A DNA stretch of 64,000 nt from Paracoccus sp. Z118 (lineage in GTDB: Bacteria > Pseudomonadota > Alphaproteobacteria > Rhodobacterales > Rhodobacteraceae): the NCBI RefSeq assembly GCF_019061185.1, contig NZ_JAHQZU010000001.1:1-64000 (forward strand), in the 5' to 3' direction. The stretch's first letter is position 1, and every line of letters starts with the position of its first letter. The notes beneath the pieces are model-generated. The model ran no database searches, had not been told where the DNA came from, and saw only the letters and a program-made list of their open reading frames with translations. This document shows positions 1 through 8,880 of the stretch, one piece after another. Made by a program: the position numbers and the translations under genes.

Positions 1-109
1 CAATCCCGGCATCAGGCTGCCCGCTGTAGCAATCTGATCAAGCTCGGACCTCTCCGAGGGCCGGCGCTCCTACACCACGCCAAGGGGCATGACCCTGGCA
101 GGCCGCTGT

Positions 110-401
110 CCGTATCCTCGACGATGGCAATCAGCCGCGCTGTGTTAGCCGCACCTTGGGGCCCGATCTGCCCGTACTCGCCCAGATGCCCGCGCAGGGC
201 ATCGATCGCCTGTGTCCGCTGCCGGATCAGAAGCTCGCGCCCGCGGAAGACCAGCCCCGCTTCCTGCGTCTCTTCGCTCTTCACGGGCACGAAACGCATC
301 GTCGGGCGCAAAGCCGCCTCGCAGATGGCTTTGGCATAGGAAGCATAGTTCTTCTGCCGCTTCATGGAGGGTTTGACGTATGCGGGCGGGATCAACCGCA
401 A
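110..401 (-). pseudogene. IS110-family transposase fragment
   Basis: The minus-strand reading frame carries the conserved N-terminal half of IS110-type (DEDD) transposases: a stretch starting RLIPPAYVKP, then CEAALRPTMRFVPVKSEE, then RQRTQAIDALRGHLGEYG and ending near VEDTDSGLP. Similarity stops around position 110, where the frame continues into unrelated residues before a stop. Roughly 95 of the usual 330-400 residues remain, with neither the start nor the C-terminal serine-containing domain, so it cannot be active. It abuts a second transposase remnant of a different family, which marks an IS graveyard. The assignment is by remembered family sequence. Confidence 0.75.
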
Positions 402-429
402 CCATGGCCCAACTTACCGATTTGCCGGC

Positions 430-1056
430 CCCAGAAGTGCGCGCCGCCGCGCCCATCACCAAGCCCCTCCGCGGCCGCTTCATACTCGGCCAGGGGTCGC
501 AGCAGCGTCGGGATCGGGATCGGCGCGTCCACATCCCTCTCCCCGCCGACCGTCTCCGTGATCGTCTGGATCGTCCGGCCGGCGGCACCGGCAACCCCGG
601 CGAAGTGGACCGGATCGACAATGCGCCCCCGCCGGCCGGCGCTGCGGGGTGGCAGGCCACCTCGACGCCCGCATGGGTGATGCGAACCGTCTCGGCCGCG
701 ACCAGCACGCGCACCGGCTCGCCGATCAGCCGTCAAGGCACCGAGTAGGCGTTGGTGTCCATCTCCACCGCGCAGTCAGGCCCGACGCGCCGGCTCAGTT
801 CGCGCAGGGCCAGGAAAGGACCACGACCCTGCAACGGCTTCAGTGTCCCGGCTTCGTCACGGGCAAAGCGCAGCATCGGCGCCTCGCCGGTCATGCTGTG
901 GACCCGCCGGTCGGCGATCTCGCGAGTCCATTGCACCAGATGCGCCTCCAGAGCCATGAAGCTGTCGAAGGCACGTCCGGCGATCGCGTTGCCCTTCACG
1001 TAGCCGACGCCGCGCTGGTCCTTGCCCTTCGTGCGCGGCCGGTAAGGCGCGCGGCT
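430..1056 (-). pseudogene. IS21-family IstA transposase remnant (C-terminal part, broken)
   Basis: Reading 1056 down to about 735 on the minus strand gives typical IstA sequence (PYRPRTKGKD, VKGNAIAGRAFDSF, then NAYSVP). Where the family has a tryptophan (PWRLIGE) the codon is TGA, a nonsense change near 733-735. The same frame continues (RLIGEPVRVLVAAETVRITH) and then shifts around 640-655 into another frame carrying GRIVDPVHFAGVAGA and LLRPLAEYEAA, the usual C-terminus. There are thus at least two inactivating changes, the N-terminal half is missing and no istB follows. Confidence 0.75.
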
Positions 1057-1194: not shown

Positions 1195-1902
1195 CTAGCC
1201 GAGCACCCGCTTCAGGTCGGACTCGATCTGCCGCTCCACGTCCAGGTCAAGGCTGGTCGTGATGTGGTCCAGATGCGTCCGCATGACCCGCATGGCCGCG
1301 CCCGCGTCGCCGGCGGCGAGGCAGTCGATGATCTCGGAATGCTCGTCTGGCCCGCAGTTGTAATGCGCGCTGTCGCGATAGACGGCGGTGATCAGCGAAC
1401 AGCGCGAGATCAGGTCCCGCAGGGTCGAGATCAGGAACTCGGACCCCAGCAGTTCGGCCAAGGACATGTGGAAGCCGCCCGACAGGCGAATCACGTCCGA
1501 CACTGCATCGGCCTCTGCCGCGGCCCGCTCACGGGCGACATGCTTGCGCAGCTCGGCGATCTGGCGGGGTGTGATGCGCGGGGTCAGTCGCTCGATGATG
1601 CGCTCCTCGACCAGCTTTCGGGTGAAGAACACGTCGCCCGCCTCTTCGACGGTGGGGGCGGCGACCACACTGCCCCGGTTAGGCAGCAGCTGGACCAGCC
1701 CCTCGCTTGCCAGCCCGGCAAGCGCCTGGCGGATGCGGGCGCGGCTGACGCCGAAGATCTCGGCCAGCTGCTCCTCCTTCAGGCGGGTGCCGGGGCGCAG
1801 CCGCCGTTCGGCGATGGCCAGCCAGATCCGCTCGCCGATCTCGGAGGACGTAGGCGGCTTGTCAGTGGCGCCGTGCGCCGGGGTCAGACTGGCATCATTC
1901 AT
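1195..1902 (-). CDS. GntR-family transcriptional regulator, FCD (FadR/VanR) subfamily
   Basis: A 235-residue protein with an N-terminal winged helix (about residues 18-85, with GTRLKEEQLAEIFGVSRARI and LVQLLPNRGSVV) and a C-terminal all-helical FCD domain. The FCD metal-site histidines are visible in FHMSLAEL, DEHSEIID and HLDHITT. Proteins of this type repress catabolic operons and are released by a pathway metabolite bound in the FCD pocket. The gene is divergent from the flavin-reductase gene, with a palindromic site about 20 bases ahead of its start, so autoregulation and control of the neighbouring uptake and hydrolase cluster is likely. The inducer is unknown; a cyclic amide or pyrimidine derivative is an inference from the neighbours. 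Confidence 0.9.
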   Translation of the reverse strand: MNDASLTPAHGATDKPPTSSEIGERIWLAIAERRLRPGTRLKEEQLAEIFGVSRARIRQALAGLASEGLVQLLPNRGSVVAAPTVEEAGDVFFTRKLVEERIIERLTPRITPRQIAELRKHVARERAAAEADAVSDVIRLSGGFHMSLAELLGSEFLISTLRDLISRCSLITAVYRDSAHYNCGPDEHSEIIDCLAAGDAGAAMRVMRTHLDHITTSLDLDVERQIESDLKRVLG

Positions 1903-1918
1903 GACAGATCATCCTTGA

Positions 1919-1938
1919 CTACAAACTTGTAGACAATA
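1919..1938. promoter_or_regulatory. Candidate GntR operator
   Basis: CTACAAACTTGTAG (1919-1932) is a perfect palindrome with 6-base arms and a 2-base spacer. It overlaps TTGTAGACAA (1927-1936), which has the TTGT-NN-ACAA form common for FCD-type GntR repressors. It lies about 20 bases upstream of the regulator start and about 80 upstream of the divergent flavin-reductase start. The same TTGTAGACA word recurs at 9095-9103. Confidence 0.6.
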
Positions 1939-2014
1939 CCGTAGGCGAAATCAACCGCTGCGGCGCCACTTCGACGGTGCCGCAGCACCTTCACTATCGA
2001 CCCCGGGGGGTGAG

Positions 2015-2650
2015 ATGGAGTTCGACTTTACTGCTCTTGAGGCGCAGGAGCGTTATCGGCTGCTGTCGAACTTCGTGGGTCCGCGGCCTGTAGCGCTGGT
2101 GTCCTCGGCGGGGCCGGAAGGCGGTCAGAATGCTGCCCCCATGAGCTTCTTCAACGTGTTCTCGCATGAGCCTCCGATCGTCATTCTGGGAATTCAGACC
2201 CGGCCGGACGGCGCCGTCAAGGACACGGTGCTCAACATCCGGGAAACCGGCGAATTCGTGGTCAACATGGTGGACCTCGCACTAGCACCGGGCATGCTGA
2301 TCTGCGGGCTGCCGTTCGACCGCGACGTGGACGAGATCCGGACCGCGGGGCTGACGCCGTTGCCGGGCCGCTTGGTGCGCGCGCCCCGCATCGCCGAGGC
2401 GCCCTGCGCCATGGAATGCCTGGTGGAGCGGTTGATCGACTATGACCGACGGGTGATCGTGCTGGGGCAGGTCGTGATGATGCATGTCCGCCCCGACTGC
2501 CTGGACGCGGCCGGGCGCTACGTGAACCCCGAGTGCTATCATCCGATCGCGCGCCTGCACGCCGACAACTACGTCGTCGCCGACCGGCAGATCGAGCTGA
2601 AGGCCCCCGACATCGCATCCATCGTCGCTGTGCGCGAGGCCAAGCTATGA
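2015..2650 (+). CDS. Flavin reductase-like domain protein (FMN-binding split barrel)
   Basis: A 211-residue protein resembling the flavin reductase-like/flavoredoxin group: RYRLLSNFVGPRPVALVSS at the N-terminus, then NAAPMSFFNVFSHEPPIV, the usual FMN-contact region. Such proteins bind FMN and either reduce flavin for a partner oxygenase or act as small oxidoreductases. A GGGGGG tract (2005-2010) serves as the ribosome-binding site for the ATG at 2015. The stop overlaps the ATG of the racemase fragment (2647) by 4 bases, so the two were translationally coupled. The partner enzyme is not visible and may have been lost with the deletion just downstream. Confidence 0.8.
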   Translation: MEFDFTALEAQERYRLLSNFVGPRPVALVSSAGPEGGQNAAPMSFFNVFSHEPPIVILGIQTRPDGAVKDTVLNIRETGEFVVNMVDLALAPGMLICGLPFDRDVDEIRTAGLTPLPGRLVRAPRIAEAPCAMECLVERLIDYDRRVIVLGQVVMMHVRPDCLDAAGRYVNPECYHPIARLHADNYVVADRQIELKAPDIASIVAVREAKL

Positions 2651-2796
2651 TCCTGCACCTGATCAACCCGAACTCGACGCCGGGCATGACGGAAACGGCG
2701 CGCGCAGCGGCTGTCGCCGTTGCCTCGCCCGGCACGCGTATAATGGCCACCAACCCTATCGGCACTCCAGCCAGTATAGAAACGGCCCATCGATAA
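2647..2796 (+). pseudogene. Asp/Glu/hydantoin racemase, N-terminal stump
   Basis: 49 codons start exactly like hydantoin or aspartate/glutamate racemases (LINPNSTPGMTETARAAA, later NPIGTPASIE) and then meet TAA at 2794-2796. Full-length members have about 220-250 residues with two catalytic cysteines, neither of which is present. The sequence right after the break is the antisense end of a truncated amidohydrolase, so the 3' four fifths of this gene was removed. In intact clusters the enzyme racemises 5-substituted hydantoins or related amides. No function is expected now. Confidence 0.8.
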
Positions 2797-4101
2797 CGCG
2801 GGGACATTCAGTGCCTGCTGCACGTCGCCGCCAAGCGACGGGCGCCTCAGGTAGACCGCGATGTCGGCGGGGGCGCCGGGGATCAGCCGCCCCAAGTCAT
2901 CGCGCCCCAGCGCCCGCGCGCCGCCGAGTGTCGCGGCATCCCACATGTCGGCCGAGCGGACCGAGTTTGGCCCGCCTGCGATCCGGCCCGTGATCAGCGC
3001 GGTCAGCAGGTTCAGGAGCATGTCGGGGGGCGCAGTGTCGGTGCCCATGGCGATGTTGATGCCCATGGCCCGCAGCCCCCCGAAGGACCGCAGCATCGAC
3101 CCCCCGCGTCCCGAGACCAGCGGGCAATGGACGACATGGACGCCATGCTCGGCGTAAAGCCGCAGGTCGGCATCCGTCGCCAAGATCGCGTGCGGTGCGA
3201 TCAGGCGCGGCGAAAGCAGTCCCAGGCTCGCCAGCCATTCGGGGGCGGTAGTGCCGTGCAGGGTGCGCACGGTGTCCAGCTCCATCCGGCCCTGTGCCAT
3301 GTGCAGCCGAATTGGGCAGCCCAACTCGCGGCTGGCGGCGTCCGTGCGGCGCAAGAGCTCGGCGGTGCAGGTTTCCACGCGGTCGGGCGCCAAAAGGCCG
3401 CGGACCAGCCCGCTGTGGCGGCCGTCATGGTTGCGGATGTAGCTGATCGCGGCGTCGAGGCCCGCAAGCCCCCGCGCTTCGTCGAAGACGGGGACCATGC
3501 GCCCAGGCCCCTCCAGCACCATCCCGCCCGAGCGGTAGGCCGGGCCAAGGTAGACCCGCAGCCCCATCTCGCCTGCCGCGTCGGCGGCGGCCTCGAACTC
3601 GGCCACCGTCTCGCCCCATTCGCGATAGAACAGGCTGGCGATCGGCGCTGCGGTGGTAATCCCGTTCAGCAGGAGCTGGGCGAAAGCGAAGCGTTTCTGG
3701 AACGCCAGTTCGTCCGGAGTATACATCTCGTAGGGGCCGCGTTCGACATAGCTTTGCGGCCAGACCCGGCCCTTCGCCCAACCCGGCTGATGGTCGATGG
3801 CGAGCACGGTCGTGTCCAGGTCGGACAGCGCATCAAGGTCGATCAGGCCGGGAGAGATCAGCGCCAGCCCGAAGTCGAGGCGCCTCGCGACCTCGCCGTC
3901 GAAGCGGCGGCCGACGAACAGGATGCGGCCGCCCTCGATCACCACCTCGCCGTCTGGGATCAGGCGGTGCTCGCCTTCACCATGGCCCAATACCCAACGA
4001 GCGGTCAAAAGGGTCCGACCGTCGGGGCACCCGCCCAGAGGCAGCGCGGACAACACTCGTCCGGCTGCGGGCGGTTCGGCGGGGCGAGTGGGCGCGGTCA
4101 C
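2797..4101 (-). pseudogene. Amidohydrolase-superfamily protein, C-terminally truncated
   Basis: From a GTG at 4101 (overlapping the upstream deaminase stop as GTGA) the frame encodes a TRZ/ATZ-like amidohydrolase: LISPGLID at the end of the first barrel strand, then HMAQG, APHAI, HCPLVSGRGG and MGTDTAPPD. The normal HxH metal motif after PG-ID is replaced by DLDALSDLD, so metal binding must differ or be absent. Family-like sequence ends near ALNVPAL (about 2800). Beyond that the open frame runs antisense through the racemase stump to 2569 and is not genuine. The final C-terminal beta-sandwich segment is therefore missing. It might be a pseudogene or a read-through fusion of unknown stability. 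Confidence 0.7.
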
Positions 4102-5288
4102 GGCATCACCTGCCCGGCCAGCTCGCCCAGCCGCCCGGTGACGCGGCCGGCCTTGACGACCAACGGGCGCGGCGCGCCCCCGGCCACCGCATGGGCCAGC
4201 GTCCGGCCCTGCAGCAGTGTCAGGTCGGCAGGGTTGCCCACCTCGATCGCGTGGGCAAAGCCCATCACCTCGGCTCCGCCGACAGAACAGACATGCAGCG
4301 CGTGCTCCAGATCGACGTCCCGCCGGAAGCCGTTCTTCATCCCGATCACCTCGGCCCGGTGCAGCATGTCGGGCTTGCCCCATGGTCCCCAAGTGTCACG
4401 GATGCCGTCGCAGCCGGCGCCGACGCGCACGCCGGCGTCGCGCAACCGCGCGAGTGAAGGCACCGGAGCCGAGGGCGCACCGGTCGTCAGTATGGCAATG
4501 TCCAGGTCCGCGATCTCGTCGATTAGCGCCGCTGTGCGCTGCCAGTCGGGCGCGCCCAGGCAGAAGGCATGGCTGACCGCCACCCGGCCCTGCATTCCCA
4601 GCGCGCGGGTCCGTTCAAAGATCAATTCGAGGCTGAAGGCGCCCAGTTCGCCCAGTTCGTGGAGGTGGATGTCCACGGGCTTGCCGTGCCTTTCCGCCAG
4701 CCCGAAGACCACGTCCAAGGCCCCCTTGGGGTCGCGCTCCATCCCGCAGGGGTCGATACCGCCGACGACATCGGCCCCGTTTGCCAGCGCTTGGTCTAGC
4801 AACTCGGCGGTGCCGGGGCGGGCCATGATGCCGGACTGGGGGAAGGCGACGATCTCGATATCGATGACCCCTGCCAGCGCCTCGCGCGTGCGAGCCACAC
4901 CTTCCAGAAGCGTCAGGCCGTGCTCCGTGTCAATGTCGACATGGCTGCGGATATGGGTCGCACCATGGGCTACCAGCCCCAACGCATGGCGCAACGACTG
5001 GCGATGTGGGTCGATGCCAATCCGGGCGCGCTGCTCGCGCTCGAAATCAATGCGTTCCTTCAGCGAGGCCCGGTTCTCGTTGACATGCCAGTCCATGCCC
5101 CAGGTGGTCTTGTCCAGATGCGTATGAGCGTCGATCAGGCCGGGGATCGCCAGATGGCCGCCGCCGTCCTCGACCGGAACGCCGGGTGCGTCGATGGCGG
5201 GCGCGATCTCGGCAATCAGTCCGCCGCGCACCAGAAGATCAGTGGGCGCGTCGCCCATCGGGCGAATGTTGCGGATCAGCAGGTCCAT
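4098..5288 (-). CDS. Cytosine deaminase-like amidohydrolase
   Basis: A 396-residue CodA/AtzC-like hydrolase. The metal and substrate motifs are complete: PGLIDAHTHLDK (about residues 50-61), THIRSHVDIDTEH, GGIDPCGMERDP, HLHELGE, SHAFCLG and GCDGIRDTWGPWG. These enzymes deaminate or hydrolyse amino- or alkylamino-substituted rings (cytosine, creatinine, N-isopropylammelide); which one cannot be told here. It follows the permease genes by 4 bases and overlaps the next amidohydrolase, so it is part of one operon with the transporter. It is the only hydrolase in the cluster that looks intact. Confidence 0.85.
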   Translation of the reverse strand: MDLLIRNIRPMGDAPTDLLVRGGLIAEIAPAIDAPGVPVEDGGGHLAIPGLIDAHTHLDKTTWGMDWHVNENRASLKERIDFEREQRARIGIDPHRQSLRHALGLVAHGATHIRSHVDIDTEHGLTLLEGVARTREALAGVIDIEIVAFPQSGIMARPGTAELLDQALANGADVVGGIDPCGMERDPKGALDVVFGLAERHGKPVDIHLHELGELGAFSLELIFERTRALGMQGRVAVSHAFCLGAPDWQRTAALIDEIADLDIAILTTGAPSAPVPSLARLRDAGVRVGAGCDGIRDTWGPWGKPDMLHRAEVIGMKNGFRRDVDLEHALHVCSVGGAEVMGFAHAIEVGNPADLTLLQGRTLAHAVAGGAPRPLVVKAGRVTGRLGELAGQVMP

Positions 5289-5292
5289 CGTC

Positions 5293-6273
5293 TTACCTCA
5301 GCTTGGGGTTCAGGGCGTCGCGCAGCCAGTCGCCGACCAGGTTGACCGACACCACCAGCAGCGACAGCTGGATCACGGGGAACACCACGACCCACCAGAT
5401 GCCAGAAAACAGGAAGTCGTTGCCCAGCCGGATCAGCGTGCCCAGGCTGGGCTGGCTGGGCGGCATCCCGATGCCCAGAAAGGACAGCGTAGCCTCCGTC
5501 AGGATCGCCATGCCGAAGTTCAGGGTGGCGGCGACGAAGACCGGGGTCAGAGTGTTCGGCAGAATGTGATGGAACATCACCCGCCTTGCCGGGACCTTCA
5601 GCAGCCGGGCGGTGGCGATGTATTCGCGCTTGCGTTCGACGGCGGTCTGGGCGCGGACGGTGCGGGCATATTGCACCCATGCTGCCAACGTGATCGCCAG
5701 CACGAGCACGCCCGCTGCGCCGATCTCCCGCAGGTTGGCCGGCAGCGCCTGACGCGCGACGGCACTGACAAGGATTGCGACCAGGATGGTCGGGATCGAC
5801 AGCAGGATATCGCCCAGTCGCATCAGGACCGTGTCGGTGAAGCCGCCAAAATACCCCGCGAACAGCCCGAACATCAGCCCGATCGCCAGTGACAGCGCGA
5901 CTGACGCAAAGCCGATCACGATCGAGATGCGCGAGCCATACAAGATGGCTGACAGCATGTCTCGCCCCTGCGTGTCCGTGCCCAGCAGGAATGGCCACAT
6001 CCCGTCGGAGTGCCAGATCGGCGGGATCTCGGCGTTCAGAAGGTCGAGTTGGCCAGGGTCATAGGGATTCTGGGGCACGTAAAGCGGCGCCGCGAAGGCA
6101 GCCAGCACCAGAAGCAGCAGCACGAGGGTTCCCAAGATCGCCGAGGGGTTGCGGGTGAAGGAATACCACAGGTCGCTCTTGCGCCAGCGCGCGATCCGAC
6201 CGTCCGGTCCGTCCGAGGGCAGGATGGCGTCGGCGGGCAGGTTTACCTGCGGCTGGGTCGCGGGATCGGTCAT
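5293..6273 (-). CDS. Dipeptide-type ABC transporter permease (DppC-like)
   Basis: A 326-residue inner-membrane permease with the DppC N-terminal soluble region (FTRNPSAILGTLVLLLLVLA), a periplasmic loop and then the BPD_transp_1 domain. The LLGTDTQGRDMLSAILYGSRIS signature and the EAA-loop region ending in ILPNTLTPVFV are clear. About six membrane segments are visible. It pairs with the DppB-like gene 13 bases upstream and the binding protein beyond it. No ATPase gene is in the cluster, so a complete transporter would need ATPases encoded elsewhere. Confidence 0.9.
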   Translation of the reverse strand: MTDPATQPQVNLPADAILPSDGPDGRIARWRKSDLWYSFTRNPSAILGTLVLLLLVLAAFAAPLYVPQNPYDPGQLDLLNAEIPPIWHSDGMWPFLLGTDTQGRDMLSAILYGSRISIVIGFASVALSLAIGLMFGLFAGYFGGFTDTVLMRLGDILLSIPTILVAILVSAVARQALPANLREIGAAGVLVLAITLAAWVQYARTVRAQTAVERKREYIATARLLKVPARRVMFHHILPNTLTPVFVAATLNFGMAILTEATLSFLGIGMPPSQPSLGTLIRLGNDFLFSGIWWVVVFPVIQLSLLVVSVNLVGDWLRDALNPKLR

Positions 6274-6286
6274 GAAGGCGGCTCCC

Positions 6287-7255
6287 TTATTTCGTTTCGC
6301 GCAGCCGCGGGTCGATCACGGCGTAGGCGATGTCCACCGCCGTATTCAGTGCGACGAAGATGAAGGAGATGATGACGAGATAGGCCGACATCACCGGGAA
6401 GTCGAGAAAGGTGACCGCCTGTATGAACAGCAGCCCCATCCCCGGCCACTGGAACACAGTCTCGGTGATCAGCGCGAAGGCGATCAGCGAGCCCACGTTC
6501 ATCGCCGTCATGGTGATGACTGGCATCAGGCAGTTGCGCAGCGCGTGGAGGAACCAGATGCGGTGACGCGGCACACCGCGGGCCCGGGCGAACTTGACGA
6601 AATCGGATCGCATCACTTCGAGCATCTCGGCCCGCACCAACCGCATGACCAGCGTGATCTGGTAGAGCGCCAGGGCAATCGAAGGAAGCAGCAGTGCTGC
6701 CCTGCCTGAGTGGGTCAGAAAGCCCGTAGACCACCAGCCCCAATCCACCACCTCGCCGCGGCCGAAGGCTGGCGCGATTCCCAGCGTCACTGAAAAGACC
6801 AGGATCAGGAGGATGCCGACCACGAAGCTGGGCAAGGAGACGCCGATGATAGACACCAGTTGCAGCGCCTCGGCATACCATCGCCCGCGCCCGATCGCGG
6901 TCAGAACCCCGAGCGGAAGCCCGATCGCGAGCGACAGGAAGGTCGCTACCAGCACCAGTTCCATTGTGGCGGGGAAGCGCTCGCCGATCAGGCCCAGCAC
7001 CTCCTGCCCGTTGCGCCAGGACATGCCGAAATCGCCGCTCGCGGCATTGGCAACGAAGCGACCATACTGGACCAGCATCGGGTCGTTCAGCCCCATCCGT
7101 TCGCGCAGGGCGTCGCGGTCGGCCTGGGTCATCTGTTCGTTGGCCATCATCTCGACGGGATCGCCGGCCACCCGGAAGATGGCAAAGGCCAGAAACGCTA
7201 CCGCCAGCATCACGAAGGCGGCGTTGAACAAGCGTCTGAGTATGAAGACCAGCAT
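6287..7255 (-). CDS. Dipeptide-type ABC transporter permease (DppB-like)
   Basis: A DppB-type permease of about 322 residues that begins with the family hallmark MLVFILRRLFNAAFVMLAV. It continues with FRVAGDPVEMM and GLNDPMLVQYGRFV and ends in the conserved VDIAYAVIDPRLR. I prefer the ATG at 7255, preceded by GAGGCAGGAAC. A longer frame starts at 7318 and overlaps the binding-protein stop by 4 bases, but its extra 21 residues look non-family. It forms the heterodimeric channel with the DppC-like protein downstream. Confidence 0.9.
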   Translation of the reverse strand: MLVFILRRLFNAAFVMLAVAFLAFAIFRVAGDPVEMMANEQMTQADRDALRERMGLNDPMLVQYGRFVANAASGDFGMSWRNGQEVLGLIGERFPATMELVLVATFLSLAIGLPLGVLTAIGRGRWYAEALQLVSIIGVSLPSFVVGILLILVFSVTLGIAPAFGRGEVVDWGWWSTGFLTHSGRAALLLPSIALALYQITLVMRLVRAEMLEVMRSDFVKFARARGVPRHRIWFLHALRNCLMPVITMTAMNVGSLIAFALITETVFQWPGMGLLFIQAVTFLDFPVMSAYLVIISFIFVALNTAVDIAYAVIDPRLRETK

Positions 7256-7314
7256 GTTCCTGCCTCGTCGGAAGAAGGGGAGGGACGGGGCCGCAGCGGC
7301 CCCGCCGACCGTGA

Positions 7315-8880
7315 TCATTTCATCCGGGTCATCCAGTGGCGGACCTTGTTATCGGCCAGTTGGACCACGCTTTCGACCTTGTCCGACATCGCCCAGGCGA
7401 TCGGCTGCTGGTGCAGCGGAAGCATGATCATGTCGTCCTTGACCATTTTCAGCGCCTGCGTCTGCAGCGCCAGACGTTTGTCCCGGTCCATCTCGGTCGA
7501 AGCCTGGACGATCAGCGTGTCCAACTCGGGATAAGACCAGCCGCCCCAATTGAAGACGCCTGCGGTTCCGGTCTTGGACTGCATCATCTGGACGAGGATG
7601 GAATAGCTGTCCAGCATCGGCTCGTTGGCCCAGGCGATCAGGTAGACGTCAGCCTTGCCGCTGGATCGCTTGGGCGTCTGCACTGCGGTCGGCCCGATGT
7701 CGAGCGTGGGCTTGAAACCCGCCCGGGTCAGCATCGACACCATGGCGTTGCAGATGTCCTCCTCGCTGACATAGGCATCGGTGGTGCAGATCAACGTGAA
7801 GGGCAGACCCTCGTGCCCGGCCTCTGCCAGCAGGGCGTTCGCGCGGGCGGCGTCGGCGGCCGGGAACTCATCCAAGGCTGCGTCATAGCCCGGAATCTCG
7901 GGCGAGACGACCGTGCCCGCGTTGCGGGACTTGCCGCGCATCACGCGCTTCTGGAGCAAATCCTTGTCGATCGCCAGTTCGAAGGCCTGGCGGACCCGCA
8001 GATCGTTGAAAGGGTTGTCACGCCCGTCGGCCAACTGGTCCCTGCGGTTGAAGCCCACCATCAGCGTCCGGAGGTCCGTCCGTTCCAGCACAGTGACACC
8101 GGGTGCCGCGGAGAGGCGCGCCACATCCTGAACGGGCGCTTCCTCGGTGAAGTCAATTTCGCCAGAAAGCAGGGCTGCGACGCGGGTGGCGGCCGAGGTG
8201 ACGGGGGTGAACTCGATCCGGTCCAGGTTGTGGAGGGGCGTGTCCCACCAGCCGTCGTTCTTCAGCAGCACAGTCTTACTGTCGGGCACCCGGCTTTCCA
8301 GACGGAAGGGCCCGGTGCCGTTGGTGTTGAAGGTGGCGAAGCCCTCAACCTGGGCGCTGACATCGGTGGGCAGTTCCGAATTGTTGGCTGTCAGCCAGCC
8401 TTCGTCGAAGATGTGGATGTTGGTCAGGTCGTTCAGCAGCAGGGGATATGGGCCGGTCAGCTCGATCTCGACCGTATGATCGTCGATCTTCGTCGCGGAC
8501 TTGTAGGCGGGCAGGTTCCCGCGAAGCGGTGAGGTTTCGTGGCTGACCCGGCGCAGCGAGGCAAGAACGTCGTCGGCCGTGAACTCGGCTCCGTCGTGGA
8601 ATTTGACCCCCTCCCGCAGCTTGAAGCGCCAGACTGCGTCCGACACGACCTCCCATTCGGTTGCCAACGCCGGCTCGATCTCCAGCTTGTCGTTGTAGCG
8701 CACCAGCCCTTCGTAGACATGGTTGAGGAAGGCGATGGTGTAGCTGTCGCCGTAGGAATAAGGGTCGAGCGAGTAGATGTCGCGCTTCCCGCCCCAGCGG
8801 ATCATGTTCTCCGCCCAGACGGGCGTTGCCAGCACGGCCACCGCCGTCACACCGGCTAGAAGTCCCTTGATGAGTCTCAT
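7315..8880 (-). CDS. ABC transporter substrate-binding protein, family 5
   Basis: A 521-residue periplasmic binding protein of the peptide/nickel (SBP_bac_5) class. It has an N-terminal signal peptide (MRLIKGLLAGVTAVAVLATPVWA), then SLDPYSYGDSYTIAFLNHVYEGLV and the family motif LREGVKFHDGAEFTADDV. Ligands of this class include peptides, opines, glycosides and heterocycles. Given its operon partners, a nitrogen heterocycle or cyclic amide is plausible but inferred. It is the first large gene of the minus-strand operon, with a candidate GntR operator about 215 bases upstream. Confidence 0.92.
   Translation of the reverse strand: MRLIKGLLAGVTAVAVLATPVWAENMIRWGGKRDIYSLDPYSYGDSYTIAFLNHVYEGLVRYNDKLEIEPALATEWEVVSDAVWRFKLREGVKFHDGAEFTADDVLASLRRVSHETSPLRGNLPAYKSATKIDDHTVEIELTGPYPLLLNDLTNIHIFDEGWLTANNSELPTDVSAQVEGFATFNTNGTGPFRLESRVPDSKTVLLKNDGWWDTPLHNLDRIEFTPVTSAATRVAALLSGEIDFTEEAPVQDVARLSAAPGVTVLERTDLRTLMVGFNRRDQLADGRDNPFNDLRVRQAFELAIDKDLLQKRVMRGKSRNAGTVVSPEIPGYDAALDEFPAADAARANALLAEAGHEGLPFTLICTTDAYVSEEDICNAMVSMLTRAGFKPTLDIGPTAVQTPKRSSGKADVYLIAWANEPMLDSYSILVQMMQSKTGTAGVFNWGGWSYPELDTLIVQASTEMDRDKRLALQTQALKMVKDDMIMLPLHQQPIAWAMSDKVESVVQLADNKVRHWMTRMK

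What the first reader, a model, noticed from the sequence alone, without database searches (positions are those of the whole stretch)
2640..2810. Deletion scar that cuts two convergent genes at one point
The plus-strand racemase loses its last four fifths after PASIETAH, and the minus-strand amidohydrolase loses its C-terminal end after ALNVPAL. Both breaks fall within about 2785-2800. The reading frame of the amidohydrolase now runs antisense through the racemase stump. A single deletion between originally convergent genes explains this with least effort. Interior genes have been lost.
Basis: partly seen in the sequence, partly recalled or inferred. Interest (0 to 1): 0.55.

Follow-up and report, generated by a model that had tools for sequence, protein, structure and literature searches.

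The report
Deletion scar in a Paracoccus operon
A Paracoccus bacterium has lost about 2.9 kilobases between two genes that face each other, which cut both genes short and removed two transporter genes between them; this is an ordinary, fairly recent gene-loss scar.

Summary
The scar is real. In Paracoccus G028 (L056) the cluster reads binding protein>permease>permease>amidohydrolase 1>amidohydrolase 2>OppD>OppF>, then <racemase <flavin reductase, GntR>. The window has this order but lacks ~92 residues of amidohydrolase 2, both ATPase genes and 195 of 240 racemase residues; on the G028 template, 2,893 bp. One correction: the breaks are not at one point. Racemase homology stops at 2781, amidohydrolase homology at 2855; the 73 bp between resemble neither, and no significant source was found. 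'TAH' and 'ALNVPAL' are filler-coded. Of 89 distinct homologous loci, 87 keep the amidohydrolase 2 end; 79 of the 84 long enough have both ATPases next. No ortholog of a lost part was found elsewhere in the genome, and the junction in no other genome searched. What remains is under purifying selection close to that of intact relatives, so the loss looks recent. Ku is encoded, which fits end joining; the mechanism is inferred, and reads were not available. Ordinary gene decay, low interest.

The parts
2857..4101 (-). amidohydrolase 2 (PRK06151 chlorohydrolase-type), 415 residues kept, ~92 C-terminal residues lost
2569..2856 (-). non-native 95-codon tail read on from amidohydrolase 2 through the filler and antisense to the racemase stump and the end of the flavin reductase gene
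   Evidence: the profile match stops; the tail alone gives no significant match
2782..2854 (.). 73-bp filler between the two breakpoints; no significant match found
2647..2796 (+). racemase stump: 45 native residues (2647-2781), 4 filler-coded residues and a stop; its start overlaps the flavin reductase stop
2015..2650 (+). flavin-reductase-like protein, intact
1195..1902 (-). GntR/FCD regulator, intact
4098..5288 (-). amidohydrolase 1 (PRK05985-type), intact
5293..6273 (-). ABC permease (called permC here), intact
6287..7318 (-). ABC permease (called permB here), intact
7315..8880 (-). ABC substrate-binding protein, intact

Best explanation
A recent deletion of about 2.9 kb between two convergent transcription units removed the C-terminal end of amidohydrolase 2, both ABC ATPase genes and four fifths of the racemase, and left a 73-bp filler at the join. 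Shown: the intact order in relatives, what is missing, that no ortholog of the missing parts was found elsewhere in the genome, and that what remains is under purifying selection. Inferred: that it was one event, and that it arose by end joining of a double-strand break with captured or newly made filler DNA (the genome encodes Ku). Also inferred: the importer has lost its own ATPases and the pathway is probably dead, although other Opp-type ATPase pairs in the genome might substitute.
For: G028 shows the intact convergent cluster; the missing interval there is 2,893 bp. 87 of 89 distinct homologous loci have amidohydrolase 2 to at least position 485 of 494; of the two others one has a frameshift (L086) and one ends at the contig edge (L159). 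79 of 84 loci with at least 2.3 kb downstream have OppD and OppF directly after it on the same strand. In the own genome the best match to G028 OppD is 65% identical (all 123 candidates scored) and to OppF 53% (114 of 114), against 78-87% and 75-88% for these genes in the other fetched Paracoccus clusters; the racemase finds only the stump and a 34% family member at C91 (24 of 24), and the amidohydrolase 2 end only a 36% match, E 0.002, at C95 (16 of 16). Three Opp pairs looked at sit beside their own permeases and binding protein. Amidohydrolase 2 residues changed in the window alone and in G028 alone are 22 and 22. Ku is present.
Against: The 73-bp filler means a clean single cut is not the whole story; insertion followed by deletion is possible. 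No raw reads. The convergent template used is 77-78% identical in DNA, so breakpoints are known only to within a few bases. In four of the eight stretches tested the highest dN/dS of the window exceeds the highest among relatives (GntR 0.395 against 0.337, amidohydrolase 1 0.274 against 0.271, flavin reductase 0.186 against 0.167, the 45-codon stump 0.420 against 0.287), and one of seven window/G028 counts leans to the window (flavin reductase 12 against 3); some relaxation cannot be excluded.
Confidence: 0.9

Rival explanations
1. Two-step loss: a mobile element or other foreign DNA entered the region and was later removed together with its flanks, leaving the 73-bp filler as its remnant.
For: A filler of unknown origin is present. 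Degraded transposase pieces (IS110-like, and a Mu-type transposase C-terminal piece) lie at about 12-999 of the window. Weak, non-significant resemblances of the filler to a phage-integrase gene on Cupriavidus plasmids (E 0.2) and to a sequence in G083 (E 7.7e-4 for one of 196 genomes).
Against: No filler match is significant; no Pfam match in the three frames tried; no plasmid match for the filler peptide at E 10; no direct repeat of at least 8 bp found at 2600-2950.
Confidence: 0.2
2. Assembly error: a chimeric contig joins two distant places.
For: The site lies 2.8 kb from the end of a contig in a 161-contig assembly.
Against: Both sides belong to the same cluster in the same order and orientation as in G028. 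No long repeat was seen at the join: of the four own-genome candidates scored for 2770-2870, the best other than itself is 26 bases at E 0.014, and no 14-mer is repeated within the window plus three other own stretches. No orthologs of the missing genes were found elsewhere.
Confidence: 0.05
3. The shorter forms are a conserved functional variant rather than a scar.
For: The chimeric amidohydrolase frame is open for 510 codons, close to the native ~494; its kept part is under purifying selection.
Against: The junction was not found in 195 other genomes or 294 other family members; the tail has no similarity to the native C-terminus; both ATPase genes are gone.
Confidence: 0.03

Closest known systems
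Intact amidohydrolase / Opp-type ABC / racemase / flavin-reductase / GntR cluster of Paracoccus and of Rhizobiales and Rhodobacteraceae (e.g. L056/L091, L092, L096)
   Same: same genes in the same order and orientation on both sides of the scar
   Different: window lacks the end of amidohydrolase 2, OppD, OppF and most of the racemase, and has a 73-bp filler
Bacterial deletion junctions made by illegitimate recombination or end joining (general knowledge, recalled)
   Same: kilobase deletion without a direct repeat found at the join; filler at the join; Ku encoded in the genome
   Different: mechanism not demonstrated; the filler is longer than the few bases usually described (recalled)

Membership tests
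Deletion scar (pseudogenes made by one deletion) | intact version with the missing DNA exists in relatives at the same place | tested here: met
Deletion scar (pseudogenes made by one deletion) | missing DNA absent from the rest of the genome | tested here: met
   protein, all candidates scored; DNA, 40 of 266 candidates scored; genome 99.01% complete by the tool's figure, 161 contigs
Deletion scar (pseudogenes made by one deletion) | the two retained ends abut directly | tested here: not met
   73 bp of non-homologous DNA lies between them; so a deletion with filler, not a clean one
Deletion scar (pseudogenes made by one deletion) | junction confirmed by reads or PCR | not testable with these tools
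   no reads held
Repeat-mediated deletion | direct repeat at both ends of the lost interval | tested here: inconclusive
   no direct repeat of 8 bp or more in 2600-2950; but only the retained join can be seen, and one repeat copy could have gone with the lost interval
Ku-dependent end joining | Ku gene in the genome | tested here: met
   PF02735, E 1.6e-46 at C22:4882-5415
Ku-dependent end joining | LigD ligase in the genome | not tested
   not searched
Asp/Glu/hydantoin racemase (PF01177) | whole domain | tested here: not met
   positions 1-46 of 211 only, 24.4 bits against a curated cut-off of 31

The most novel reading that the evidence does not exclude
The 510-residue chimera, in which the native C-terminal ~92 residues of an amidohydrolase are replaced by 95 residues read from filler and from the antisense strand of two genes, is expressed and folded: a new C-terminus born from antisense sequence.
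Probability: 0.03. Interest if true: 0.45.

Novelty: new member of a known kind. Interest (0 to 1): 0.12.

Why it matters
It is a clear example of how a catabolic cluster can die by one event: enzymes and the importer's ATPases are lost together while the rest still looks functional. It also warns annotators that a full-length open frame (510 codons, close to the native length) can hide a truncated protein. Beyond that it is ordinary.

Tried and rejected
Relocation of the lost genes: not supported. The own genome has many Opp-type ATPases, but the best OppD is 65% and the best OppF 53% identical. Of these I looked at the surroundings of three pairs only (C73, C95 near 158 kb, C55 near 44 kb), each with its own permeases and binding protein; the others were not looked at.

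Origin of the filler: searched in 196 genomes, plasmids and phages, as a peptide and against Pfam: nothing significant. Alignment to four relatives and to the first 20 kb of the window, 20 comparisons with 30 shuffles each: one beat all its shuffles (G028, loose scoring, 17.5 against 16.5), but that place is in a permease gene outside the lost interval. Against the lost genes of 78-82 loci, three of six mean scores beat all 40 shuffles (OppD one way, OppF and racemase the other way), with scattered positions; for OppD 6 of 12 positions fell at 125-173. These are simple base shuffles that do not keep codon structure. A piece copied from the lost genes at the ~77% identity seen elsewhere would score about 39 (my arithmetic), the best seen against the relatives being 17.5, so I do not take the filler for such a piece. 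The integrase resemblance was not accepted: E 0.2, gaps, frame not kept.

Promoter and terminator scan of 1900-4200: none found. Paper searches: two for the cluster (no paper; one paper, not on this cluster by its listing) and two for deletion junctions; only listings and starts of abstracts were seen. The substrate of the cluster was not worked out.

Not examined: of the 19 genomes with amidohydrolase 2 (own included), 13 relatives were taken as long stretches; G061, G064 and G066 were not looked at further, G024 and G090 only as short loci. One search kept the best 80 of 217. In one search four duplicate loci (L091, L094, L163, L168) were dropped before counting. In one search only racemases above 100 bits with the motif were counted (78).

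Full report
What is there. The window is the first 64 kb of contig C73 (288,744 bp) of a 3.6-Mb, 161-contig genome. Left to right: GntR/FCD regulator (-), flavin-reductase-like protein (+), racemase stump (+), amidohydrolase 2 (-), amidohydrolase 1 (-), two ABC permeases (-), substrate-binding protein (-).

The intact version. The four congeners with the closest amidohydrolase 2 (77-80%) and racemase (58-76%) carry both within about 5 kb. Taken out and compared, all four have an OppD-type and an OppF-type ATPase gene directly after amidohydrolase 2. In G028 (L056) the next genes are racemase, flavin reductase and GntR with the racemase convergent, exactly the window's order. In G007, G014 and G019 the GntR/flavin reductase/racemase block is turned round. 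So the convergent order is not the only one in the genus, but it exists and recurs: of 76 loci that have both ATPases and at least 4.2 kb downstream, 17 have the racemase convergent, 45 co-directional and 14 show none there.

What is missing. On the G028 template the last shared base of amidohydrolase 2 is 7759 and of the racemase 10653, so 2,893 bp are absent: about 92 C-terminal residues of amidohydrolase 2, both ATPase genes and 195 of 240 racemase residues.

The join. Racemase homology ends at 2781, amidohydrolase homology at 2855. All of 78 homologous racemases have G, none TAH, after SIE; of 29 further family members 28 have G and one S. A profile of 87 amidohydrolase 2 homologs matches the window's chimera to profile position 403 of 489, and the tail alone does not match significantly. 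The 73 bp between are filler. Its source was not found; weak scores against the lost genes are far below those of a recently copied piece.

How unusual is the loss. Of 89 distinct loci (80, itself the best 80 of 217, plus 13 fetched, minus 4 duplicates), 87 reach position 485 of the 494-residue G028 query; the others are L086, split by a frameshift, and L159, cut by the contig end. Of 84 with at least 2.3 kb downstream, 79 have both ATPases right there on the same strand; L105, L164, L165, L166 and L169 do not. The junction was not found in 195 other genomes (up to four candidates scored in each) or in 294 other family members (two scored in each; the two matches there cover only the amidohydrolase side).

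Moved or lost? Searched as proteins with every candidate scored, the own genome has no OppD above 65%, no OppF above 53%, no racemase besides the stump except a 34% family member at C91, and for the amidohydrolase 2 end only a 36% match, E 0.002, at C95. In the other fetched Paracoccus clusters these ATPases are 78-87% (OppD) and 75-88% (OppF) identical to G028's. A DNA search with the whole interval agrees (40 of 266 candidates scored; it did not list even the stump, so it is the weaker test). Hence lost, within a genome the tool scores 99.01% complete.

Age. The kept parts have no stop or frameshift. dN/dS of amidohydrolase 2 is 0.17-0.23 for the window against relatives and 0.10-0.29 among relatives. 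In four of eight stretches the window's highest value exceeds the relatives' highest: GntR 0.395 against 0.337, amidohydrolase 1 0.274 against 0.271, flavin reductase 0.186 against 0.167, the 45-codon stump 0.420 against 0.287. Changes in the window alone and in G028 alone, with G074 as outgroup, are 22/22 for amidohydrolase 2, 30/26 for amidohydrolase 1, 30/30 for the binding protein, 13/7 and 15/16 for the permeases, 13/11 for GntR and 12/3 for the flavin reductase. On the whole the scar looks young compared with the species split; slight relaxation is not excluded.

Mechanism (inferred). No direct repeat found at the join, filler present, Ku encoded: end joining of a break is the simplest route. 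Insertion and later loss of a mobile element is the main rival, given transposase remnants at 12-999. Effects, also inferred: a 510-residue chimera, a 49-residue stump, an importer without its own ATPases, and two transcripts that may now run into each other (the scan of 1900-4200 found no terminator).

Verdict. It is an ordinary deletion scar.

Noticed in passing
window 12-999 (- strand): Degraded transposase pieces: an IS110-like fragment (PF01548, below cut-off) and a Mu-type transposase C-terminal fragment (PF22483, just over cut-off), near the GntR gene.
   Followed up: partly
L086, L021, L020 (G018, G024, G090): Amidohydrolase 2 is split by an apparent frameshift in three other Paracoccus genomes, with OppD still present next to it; this may be repeated decay of the cluster or sequencing errors.
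   Followed up: partly
L055, L057, L058 versus L056 and window: The GntR/flavin reductase/racemase block lies in opposite orientations next to the ABC operon in different Paracoccus, and its place varies across Rhizobiales and Rhodobacteraceae.
   Followed up: partly
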